Source of the DNA: Laetiporus sulphureus 93-53 | Taxonomy: Eukaryota > Basidiomycota > Agaricomycetes > Polyporales > Laetiporaceae | Reading direction: 5' to 3' | Assembly: GCF_001632365.1 (NCBI RefSeq) | Contig: NW_024468514.1 | Span: 377,862 to 441,861 of the forward strand | DNA length: 64,000 nucleotides | In this document: piece by piece, positions 44,601-45,853 of the stretch | How positions within the stretch are numbered: position 1 is the first letter of the stretch | Layout: every line of letters begins with the position of its first letter | Made by a program: the position numbers and the translations under genes | Notes under the pieces: generated by a model | Databases searched by the model: none | What the model was told of the DNA's origin: nothing | Seen by the model: the letters and a program-made list of their open reading frames with translations, nothing else

Positions 44601-45853
44601 GGTGTTGGAACAGTACCTTCGCATGTACTGCAACCACAGACAAAATGATTGGGTCTATTATCTGCCAACAGCAGAATTTTCATACAACAACCAGACCCAT
44701 GAATCCAGCGCACTTTCCCCCTTCTTTGTCGAATATGGCCGACACCCAAAAATGGCACCAGACGTACACGAATGAATACGTCATCCCTCATTGGAACATT
44801 TATTTGCCCACCGATCTGAGGCACAAGAACAGGCAAAGGCGGCATTGGAAGTTTCAGCCTCACGGATGAAATGGTACTTCAACGAGAAAAAGGGAGAAGT
44901 CCCATTCAAAGTTGGAGATCTAGTACTACTCAAAGGAAAGGACCTGTGAGTAAAAGTCAAGTCCGCGAAGCTAGGCACACAAAACTTCGGACCTTACAAA
45001 GTACTTCAGAAGCTAGGTCCAGTCACATTTAAACTGGAACTGCCTAAACAAATGAGGGTCCACCTGGTCTTCCATGCTAGCAAGTTGATCATGTATCATC
45101 AAGACACGGTCGCAAACTAAGCCTCCAGCTATAGAAATCGAAGGAGAACCAGAATTCGAAGTTGAGGAAATACTAGACTCGAAGGTCGTAAGGGGAAGGG
45201 TCCAATACCTCGTCAAATGGAAAGGCTATGACCATTCTGATGATACATGGCAACCCCAAACAAATCTTACCAACGCCGATGAGCTTCTTCAAGAATTCCA
45301 CCAACAACACCCAGATGCAGCCAAAGCACCAATCAGGGTCGTCACTTTTGGTGAAAAATGCTTCAAATTATCCTCATATGAAGTTGCACCGATCTCCACA
45401 CACAGAATCAATATGTCTGACCATCCGGATGAGTTCTTCCTATATCATAAAATGACAGACCTCACCAAATCACCAAAGAAATCCTCAAATGAAGCAGCAG
45501 GATGGGATATTTATGCAGCAGAAACACATGAAATCCCTCCGCATTCACGAGCTGTGGTAGATACAGGAGTCACCATAGACCCTTCCAAATATACCTATAC
45601 ATGAATAGCTCCATGCAGCGGACTGGCTGCAAGAGGAATTGACGTGGGAGCAGGAGTTGTTGACCCTGATTACACTGGAGAACTCAAGGTCGTACTGATT
45701 AACACAACAGATTTCATATTTTCGATAAAACCGGGAGACAGGATAGCTCAAATAATCTTCGAGTATTACGCTGAAGGGCTTCCCTCTCGAAGTTACCAAC
45801 CGTTGTGAGCAACTAGAAGGGGAAACAAAGGTTTTGGCTCCTCGGGACAATGA
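41694..45853 (+). pseudogene. G1 Pol: protease-RT-RNaseH-integrase-chromodomain-dUTPase (decayed)
   Basis: Domain order: protease with ALLDSGAYSCYI (41812); RT from PTRKPYDHLIEL (42446), with VQDYRNLNAVMKKN and VVYLDDILIF (42955-42984); RNase H with CLETDSSDYATGAVLEQLGE (43399) and EMLAIIWALEEYRHYLEGH; integrase zinc region KLHHDTLPAGHPG plus CDSCQCNK (44065-44206), then ISDRGTQFASKLF and QTERVNQVLEQYLR; chromodomain with VEEILDSKVVRGRVQYLVKW (about 45160); dUTPase 45450-45853. Stops and frameshifts occur, for example a TAA after APSTF at 42903, then a frameshift, and TGA at 43262, 43717, 44773, 44947, 45602 and 45806. Normally one polyprotein; here inactive as read. Confidence 0.9.
45450..45853 (+). 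pseudogene. G1 dUTPase domain at the Pol C terminus
   Basis: Trimeric-type dUTP pyrophosphatase, which hydrolyses dUTP to dUMP and PPi and limits uracil in DNA. Motif I is EAAGWDIYAAETHEIP (45490-45537). Motif II is read as IAPCSGLA directly after a TGA (45602-45604) that probably replaced the arginine codon of the usual R-x-A-P-R-S-G-L. Motif III is GIDVGAGVVDPDYTGELKVV with the catalytic aspartate. Motif IV is KPGDRIAQIIFE, and motif V is GNKGFGSSGQ just before the TGA at 45851-45853. The polypurine tract and 3' LTR follow within 18 bases, so the domain is part of the element and not a flanking gene. Confidence 0.88.

What the first reader, a model, noticed from the sequence alone, without database searches (positions are those of the whole stretch)
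45450..45853. dUTPase at the very C terminus of a fungal chromovirus Pol
Both copies of an 8 kb Ty3/gypsy element encode a trimeric-type dUTPase after the chromodomain, ending 18 bases before the 3' LTR. Motifs I, III, IV and V are readable, and the stretch sits between the chromodomain and the polypurine tract in both copies. Retroelement dUTPases are established in betaretroviruses and non-primate lentiviruses, where they lie in gag-pro or within pol upstream of integrase. A position behind an integrase chromodomain is unusual. It may lower uracil incorporation when cDNA is made in cells with a high dUTP/dTTP ratio.
Basis: partly seen in the sequence, partly recalled or inferred. Interest (0 to 1): 0.8.

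Follow-up and report, generated by a model that had tools for sequence, protein, structure and literature searches.

The report
Fungal retrotransposon with a tail dUTPase
A decayed mobile element in a bracket fungus carries, at the very end of its polymerase protein, an enzyme domain that keeps uracil out of DNA; the domain is real and common in this genome, but this arrangement was described in a related fungus in 2010.

Summary
Both window copies of an 8 kb Ty3/Gypsy element carry a trimeric-type dUTPase domain in the frame of the integrase chromodomain, with its stop codon 18 bases before the 3' LTR. Both are broken by in-frame stops, so the window's own domains are dead. The position is neither local nor new. 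In the window's genome (Laetiporus sulphureus, by two exact protein matches), 123 of the 150 scored dUTPase hits have a chromodomain hit 106-204 bases upstream on the same strand. The copies read fall into four families with a C-terminal dUTPase and one that carries it before the protease. In a protein search, 27 of 120 listed hits match both the integrase-end/chromodomain profile and dUTPase, in that order in all 27; named hosts include Phanerochaete and Volvariella. A dUTPase at the carboxyl end of Pol was reported in Postia placenta (PMC2864245). Stop-free copies show few amino-acid changes per silent change (pN/pS 0.11-0.24), though the window's own family gives thin data. Most likely the domain lowers dUTP near the reverse transcriptase; its place may leave motif V free at the Pol C terminus. 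New member of a known kind.

The parts
38463..39183 (+). 5' LTR of copy A
   Evidence: LTR ends TGTCACAG...CTGTGACA; 94.8% identical to the 3' LTR over 679 columns, 33 transitions and 2 transversions
40773..41276 (+). gag region of copy A
   Evidence: Retrotrans_gag PF03732 E 3.3e-4, below its curated cut-off
41952..42905 (+). protease remnant and start of reverse transcriptase, copy A
   Evidence: weak RVP_2 at E 0.028, below cut-off, on 41952-42443; 42444-42905 was not scanned itself but aligns with the RVT_1 frame of copy B
43720..44775 (+). integrase zinc finger and core, copy A
   Evidence: open frames, 96% complementary to copy B, whose frame 51307-50378 matches Integrase_H2C2 E 1.2e-20 and rve E 5.3e-12
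45155..45304 (+). chromodomain, copy A
   Evidence: PF00385 E 5e-19, residues 23-72 of frame 45089-45601
45467..45853 (+). dUTPase domain, copy A; broken by in-frame stops, final stop at 45851-45853
   Evidence: PF00692 on both pieces and 114.6 bits in the genome search
45854..45871 (+). 18-base stretch with the polypurine tract between the Pol stop and the 3' LTR
   Evidence: sequence
45872..46551 (+). 3' LTR of copy A
48553..49271 (-). 3' LTR of copy B
   Evidence: 87.9% identical to its 5' LTR over 717 columns, 63 transitions and 24 transversions (one search compared stretches a few bases longer)
49290..49676 (-). dUTPase domain, copy B; broken by in-frame stops
   Evidence: 106.5 bits to PF00692, 3 TGA inside; translation
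49839..49988 (-). chromodomain, copy B
   Evidence: PF00385 E 1.1e-18 in frame 50333-49593; genome search place C5:427700-427849
50378..51307 (-). integrase, copy B
   Evidence: Integrase_H2C2 and rve
51889..52707 (-). reverse transcriptase, copy B
   Evidence: RVT_1 E 5e-30
56005..56724 (-). 5' LTR of copy B

Best explanation
The window holds two dead copies of a Ty3/Gypsy chromovirus family whose Pol polyprotein ends in a homotrimeric-type dUTPase fused behind the integrase chromodomain. Shown: the domain, its frame, its place, its presence in several families of this genome and in other basidiomycetes, and constraint on its protein sequence in the families with enough open copies. Inferred: in live elements the Pol-borne dUTPase hydrolyses dUTP in or near the particle, so the reverse transcriptase puts less uracil into cDNA in non-dividing or starved hyphae. 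Also inferred: the C-terminal slot suits the enzyme because motif V, the flexible arm that closes over the active site, stays free at the end of the polyprotein.
For: Pfam matches for chromodomain and dUTPase in one frame. The domain of an open copy of the window's family (L024) aligns over its full length with solved dUTPases (best 2okb, E 1.1e-31; 76 distinct sequences at E 0.001 or better). 123 of 150 scored dUTPase hits have a chromodomain hit 106-204 bases upstream on the same strand. In the protein database 27 of 120 listed hits match both profiles built here, 27 of 27 in the order chromodomain part then dUTPase; 25 of 120 carry both PF00385 and PF00692 in the precomputed Pfam column. 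Of the 15 whose match reaches the end of the dUTPase profile, 13 end one or two residues after it. Constraint: pN/pS of stop-free copies 0.109 (C3, 7 copies), 0.193 (C1, 7), 0.243 (C2, 4), 0.182 (N, 7); between families the linker is less conserved than either domain (pN 0.49-0.59 against 0.27-0.36). Literature: PMC2864245.
Against: No activity, expression or transposition was tested. Both window copies are broken. Stop-bearing copies show similarly low ratios (0.154-0.172), because most divergence predates their decay, so the ratio speaks for the source lineages and not for these copies. For the window's own family (C2) the evidence is thin: 4 stop-free copies, median pair ratio 0.339, and among transversions 3 amino-acid changes and no silent one. 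C4 was not tested. Within C3 the dUTPase is a little less constrained than SH3 plus chromodomain (0.05-0.08 against 0.02-0.05, three pairs). Many related chromoviruses seem to do without the domain (63 rows called 'none').
Confidence: 0.85

Rival explanations
1. The domain is mainly structural or regulatory: a trimer-forming or nucleic-acid-binding tail of Pol that has lost or does not need catalysis.
For: It is fused to the integrase end, and trimer formation could help assembly (inference). The dUTPase-related gene of bovine immunodeficiency virus is critical for replication despite lacking activity, according to the title of PMC4261571 (search listing only).
Against: Motifs I-V, including the Asp and Tyr of motif III and the glycine-rich motif V, are kept in the representatives of C1, C2 and C3 (roles of the residues recalled); the C4 representative departs at motif II. 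A purely structural role would not be expected to keep them.
Confidence: 0.1
2. The dUTPase is a recent chance capture at this locus with no role.
For: Both window copies are broken.
Against: The same arrangement occurs at 123 of 150 scored hits in the genome, in families whose silent sites are saturated or nearly so against each other, and in other fungi.
Confidence: 0.02
3. These are host DUT genes lying next to elements.
For: Four gene models of Laetiporus sulphureus listed by the search are named dUTP diphosphatase or dUTPase-like.
Against: Two of the four are exact translations of element copies in hand (P0121 = L066, P0123 = L001; the other two had no exact match in the loci in hand). 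The 55's 150 hits that I read with their flanks, beside the window's two, are retroelement-borne.
Confidence: 0.02

Closest known systems
PosPlaTy3-4 of Postia placenta (Novikova, Smyshlyaev and Blinov 2010, PMC2864245; author names partly recalled)
   Same: LTR retrotransposon of a basidiomycete with dUTPase at the carboxyl terminus of Pol, in a paper on chromodomain-containing Gypsy elements (passages read).
   Different: Other host species.
PosPlaTy3-3, PosPlaTy3-5 and the dUTPase-bearing elements of Phanerochaete chrysosporium and Tuber
   Same: Fungal LTR elements with dUTPase.
   Different: PosPlaTy3-3 has the domain at the N terminus of Pol, PosPlaTy3-5 between protease and RT; the position in the other two was not seen in PMC2864245. 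Family N of this genome, with dUTPase before the protease, resembles the first. The Phanerochaete paper is not held, the Tuber paper was not looked up; both are known here only through papers that cite them.
Bdelloid rotifer Juno, Vesta and TelKA elements (PMC5408684)
   Same: LTR retrotransposons with a dUTPase in pol (passages read).
   Different: Domain between protease and RT, and no chromodomain.
Retroviral dUTPases of betaretroviruses and non-primate lentiviruses
   Same: Trimeric-type dUTPase in a retroelement polyprotein; the chain 1f7d, named pol polyprotein, matches at E 6e-13 (that it is a lentiviral enzyme is recalled).
   Different: Placed in gag-pro or within pol before integrase (recalled). 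The best sequence match of the window's family, 2okb, is a poxviral enzyme (source recalled, names the enzyme only).

Membership tests
Chromovirus (chromodomain Ty3/Gypsy) | PR-RT-RH-IN order with chromodomain at the integrase C terminus | tested here: met
   RVT_1, Integrase_H2C2, rve, SH3_Tf2-1 (GPY/F region, recalled) and Chromo found in that order in copy B; protease only weak in copy A (E 0.028, below cut-off); RNase H was not scanned
Chromovirus (chromodomain Ty3/Gypsy) | two LTRs with polypurine tract before the 3' LTR | tested here: met
Chromovirus (chromodomain Ty3/Gypsy) | target-site duplication | tested here: inconclusive
   flanks of copy A read GTTGG and GTTAT, only 3 of 5 alike; copy B not resolved
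Trimeric-type dUTPase (PF00692) | profile match above the curated cut-off | tested here: met
   22.9 and 61.4 bits on the two pieces of copy A, cut-off 22; 114.6 bits in the genome search
Trimeric-type dUTPase (PF00692) | five motifs with catalytic residues | tested here: met
   met in an open copy of the family (motif definitions recalled); in the window's two copies the frame is broken
Trimeric-type dUTPase (PF00692) | hydrolysis of dUTP as a homotrimer | not testable with these tools
   needs purified protein
PosPlaTy3-4-like group | dUTPase at the carboxyl terminus of Pol | tested here: met
PosPlaTy3-4-like group | sequence kinship with PosPlaTy3-4 | not tested
   no sequence of that element was identified among the hits

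The most novel reading that the evidence does not exclude
The C-terminal slot behind the chromodomain has been filled by dUTPases more than once: chromovirus lineages of basidiomycetes captured dUTPases from different sources, or swapped them, and each time they ended at the very end of Pol.
Probability: 0.4. Interest if true: 0.45.

Novelty: new member of a known kind. Interest (0 to 1): 0.25.

Why it matters
It confirms and extends a 2010 report: in one polypore genome most scored dUTPase hits (123 of 150) sit directly behind a chromodomain, so the C-terminal place is the rule there and not an oddity, and in the families with enough open copies the protein sequence has been held by selection. 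That makes these elements a handy system to ask whether uracil in cDNA limits retrotransposition. It also warns that 'dUTP diphosphatase' gene models in such genomes can be transposon pieces.

Tried and rejected
Rejected: chance insertion at one locus; host DUT gene next to an element. Tried without result: finding the host's own DUT gene with a yeast query (P0206). Of its 150 scored places 147 overlap those; of the three new ones, two have a chromodomain hit upstream (C63:69242, and C26:145675, which was read and is an element copy) and one, C47:49344, was not read. The paper of Novikova and Blinov 2008 is not held.

Not decided: one or several origins of the C-terminal domain. In the careful dUTPase tree (64 rows; P0044 left out as a long row after the quick tree, P0052 and P0060 left out for short domains; the 23 stand-alone rows were hand-picked from the hits) the 37 C-terminal rows need 4 changes, starred branches force at least 2, and the AU test of one clade gives p 0.088. 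C1 held with C2-C4 gives p 0.304. Adding the pre-protease family to all C-terminal rows gives p 0.0447; these groups were tested after the quick tree was seen. On the integrase-chromodomain tree (44 rows hand-picked from 115) the window's family and families C3/C4 stand apart, but holding them together is not rejected (p 0.311), nor is the window's family with P0002 (p 0.3), so exchange of the domain between lineages is not shown. Presence needs 15 changes on the 115-row quick tree and 4 on the 44-row careful one; absence was called only where at least 15 residues follow the chromodomain hit, 24 rows were left uncalled, and some 'none' rows may still be truncated gene models.

Selection: rows dropped before the counts were stop-bearing copies and one stop-free copy per family that differs in length from the mode (8 to 7 in N, C1 and C3, 5 to 4 in C2).

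Full report
What is in the window. Two Ty3/Gypsy copies lie tail to tail. Copy A (+) runs from its 5' LTR at 38463 to its 3' LTR end at 46551. Copy B (-) runs from about 56724 down to about 48553. Pfam finds reverse transcriptase, integrase zinc finger, integrase core, SH3_Tf2-1 and chromodomain, and then dUTPase in the frame of the chromodomain. The dUTPase of copy A is split by an in-frame stop after profile position 42, and again between motifs IV and V; copy B has these and one more. The last stop lies 18 bases before the LTR in both.

Whose genome. The window is C5:377862-441861 of a 38.6 Mb assembly. Protein P0121, named by its source as from Laetiporus sulphureus 93-53, is, its first residue apart, an exact translation of part of locus L066, and P0123 (same organism) of L001; two further Laetiporus models, P0124 and P0142, had no exact match in the loci in hand. 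The contig length given for P0124, 552,686, equals that of contig C19; the lengths given for P0121 and P0123 (401,563 and 772,203) differ from those of the contigs here (395,962 for C35 and 756,462 for C11). The host is thus Laetiporus sulphureus or a very close strain, a polypore (Polyporales).

How common it is. A PF00692 search of the whole genome returned 150 scored matches out of 204 candidates, so the count is a lower bound. A PF00385 search returned 150 of 195. Of the 150 dUTPase matches, 123 have a chromodomain match 106-204 bases upstream on the same strand; with cuts that I chose the spacings split into 39, 56 and 28. Of the 27 without, some lie at a contig end or behind a masked stretch (for example L021, L025, L053), others belong to family N, where the dUTPase stands before an aspartic-protease-like stretch (read by eye), and the rest were not read. 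Of the 27 chromodomain matches without a dUTPase match, two (C26:145366 and C63:68939) have one; the others were not followed. I read 55 of the 150 hits with their flanks, beside the window's two: 30, 20 and 5. A sixth locus, C26:145675, comes. All of these are retroelement-borne. The 50 sort into five families by sequence marks that I chose: C1 (16), C2, the window's (12), C3 (10), C4 (3) and N (9). These labels are mine.

Beyond this genome. A profile of the integrase end, chromodomain and dUTPase found 421 proteins, of which 120 are listed. With profiles made here, 114 of 120 match the SH3-plus-chromodomain part, 33 the dUTPase and 27 both, in the order chromodomain part then dUTPase in 27 of 27. 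By the precomputed Pfam column it is 25 of 120; P0048 lacks the chromodomain match there and P0060 the dUTPase match. Fifteen of the 27 reach the end of the dUTPase profile, and 13 of these end one or two residues after it. Named hosts among the 27 are Phanerochaete sordida (P0015), Volvariella volvacea (P0016) and Hermanssonia centrifuga (P0048). P0013 and P0122, close to the window's family, both report a 10,828-base contig and may be two halves of one broken element; I did not verify that.

What is known. PMC2864245 (passages read) states that in LTR retrotransposons of Postia placenta the dUTPase can be found at the amino terminus of Pol, at its carboxyl terminus (PosPlaTy3-4), or between protease and RT; that earlier reports exist for Phanerochaete chrysosporium and Tuber melanosporum; and that the domain seems to have been acquired independently from different sources. 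It repeats the idea that dUTPase lets viruses replicate in non-dividing cells. PMC2774666 (passages) mentions a betaretroviral dUTPase similar to that of fungal chromoviruses. PMC5408684 (passages) describes rotifer elements with the domain between protease and RT, and says that in retrotransposons it had been reported only in basidiomycetes, similarly placed; that differs from PMC2864245 on the place. PMC11105155 (passage) reports PF00692 among enriched, transposon-related domains in Entomophthora. Eight searches of the held library, which paired dUTPase with chromodomain, Gypsy, chromovirus, Ty3, Postia, LTR retrotransposon or transposable element, and Laetiporus sulphureus with retrotransposon, listed no title about these Laetiporus elements. 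Of the 12 papers ten were listed and none was read. The library leaves out most subscription journals.

Does it work. In stop-free copies pN/pS of the dUTPase is 0.109 (C3), 0.193 (C1), 0.182 (N) and 0.243 (C2, 4 copies only; median pair ratio 0.339). With transversions alone it is 0.026 (C3), 0.136 (C1) and 0.067 (N); C2 has 3 amino-acid and no silent transversions, too few to read. Stop-bearing copies give 0.163 (C3, 2 copies), 0.154 (C1, 5) and 0.172 (C2, 3), so the signal comes mostly from the shared past of the lineages. Between families silent sites are saturated or nearly so in most comparisons; amino-acid sites of the dUTPase (pN 0.28-0.36) are about as conserved as those of SH3 plus chromodomain (0.27-0.36), while the linker between them is not (0.49-0.59). 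Within C3 the dUTPase is slightly less constrained than SH3 plus chromodomain. This is evidence for a domain that mattered to the element. It does not show the reaction.

Mechanism. From the known chemistry of the family (recalled), a Pol-borne dUTPase would remove dUTP near the reverse transcriptase. In trimeric dUTPases the glycine-rich motif V lies on a flexible C-terminal arm that closes over an active site (recalled), and in these proteins motif V is at or close to the end of the polyprotein (family C1 has a tail of about 17 residues behind it). I infer that this is why the slot is used. Whether the domain is cut off by the protease is unknown.

Origin. The careful dUTPase tree groups C2, C3 and C4 (100/96), sets C1 with P0007 (100/99), draws the Phanerochaete-Volvariella-Hermanssonia rows as a set of modest support (65/95), and places P0002 with P0198, a protein listed by the search without a chromodomain (97/88). 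One origin of all C-terminal domains is disfavoured but not rejected (p 0.088). The integrase-chromodomain tree does not group C2 with C3/C4, but grouping them is not rejected either (p 0.311). Repeated capture is thus open, as PMC2864245 already proposed.

Verdict. Real, ordinary for basidiomycete chromoviruses, already described in kind. The added value is the copy number, the constraint on the sequence and the two positions side by side in one genome.

Noticed in passing
window 46550-48450: A Ty1/Copia fragment (gag_pre-integrs, rve and RVT_2 matches) lies between the two tail-to-tail Gypsy copies.
   Followed up: no
window 42963-45962 against copy B: Copies A and B are 93-98% alike here in 500-base steps but only 79-85% alike across 38963-41462. 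In about 1.4 kb near the 3' end they share 23 derived positions against 7 (A) and 21 (B) private ones, measured against seven other copies. This may be gene conversion between the inverted copies, or recombinant parents.
   Followed up: partly
window LTRs: LTR pairs differ mostly by transitions: A 33 transitions and 2 transversions, B 63 and 24, which fits C-to-T decay (inference); copy B looks older.
   Followed up: partly
L001-L006, L027, L058, L070, L072-L074: A separate family carries dUTPase between gag and an aspartic-protease-like stretch, so two dUTPase positions coexist in one genome.
   Followed up: partly
P0121, P0123: Two of four public gene models named dUTP diphosphatase or dUTPase-like in Laetiporus sulphureus are exact translations of retroelement copies.
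   Followed up: yes
whole genome G000: No host DUT gene was recognised among the scored dUTPase hits; it may be hidden by introns and the cap, and not all hits were read.
   Followed up: partly
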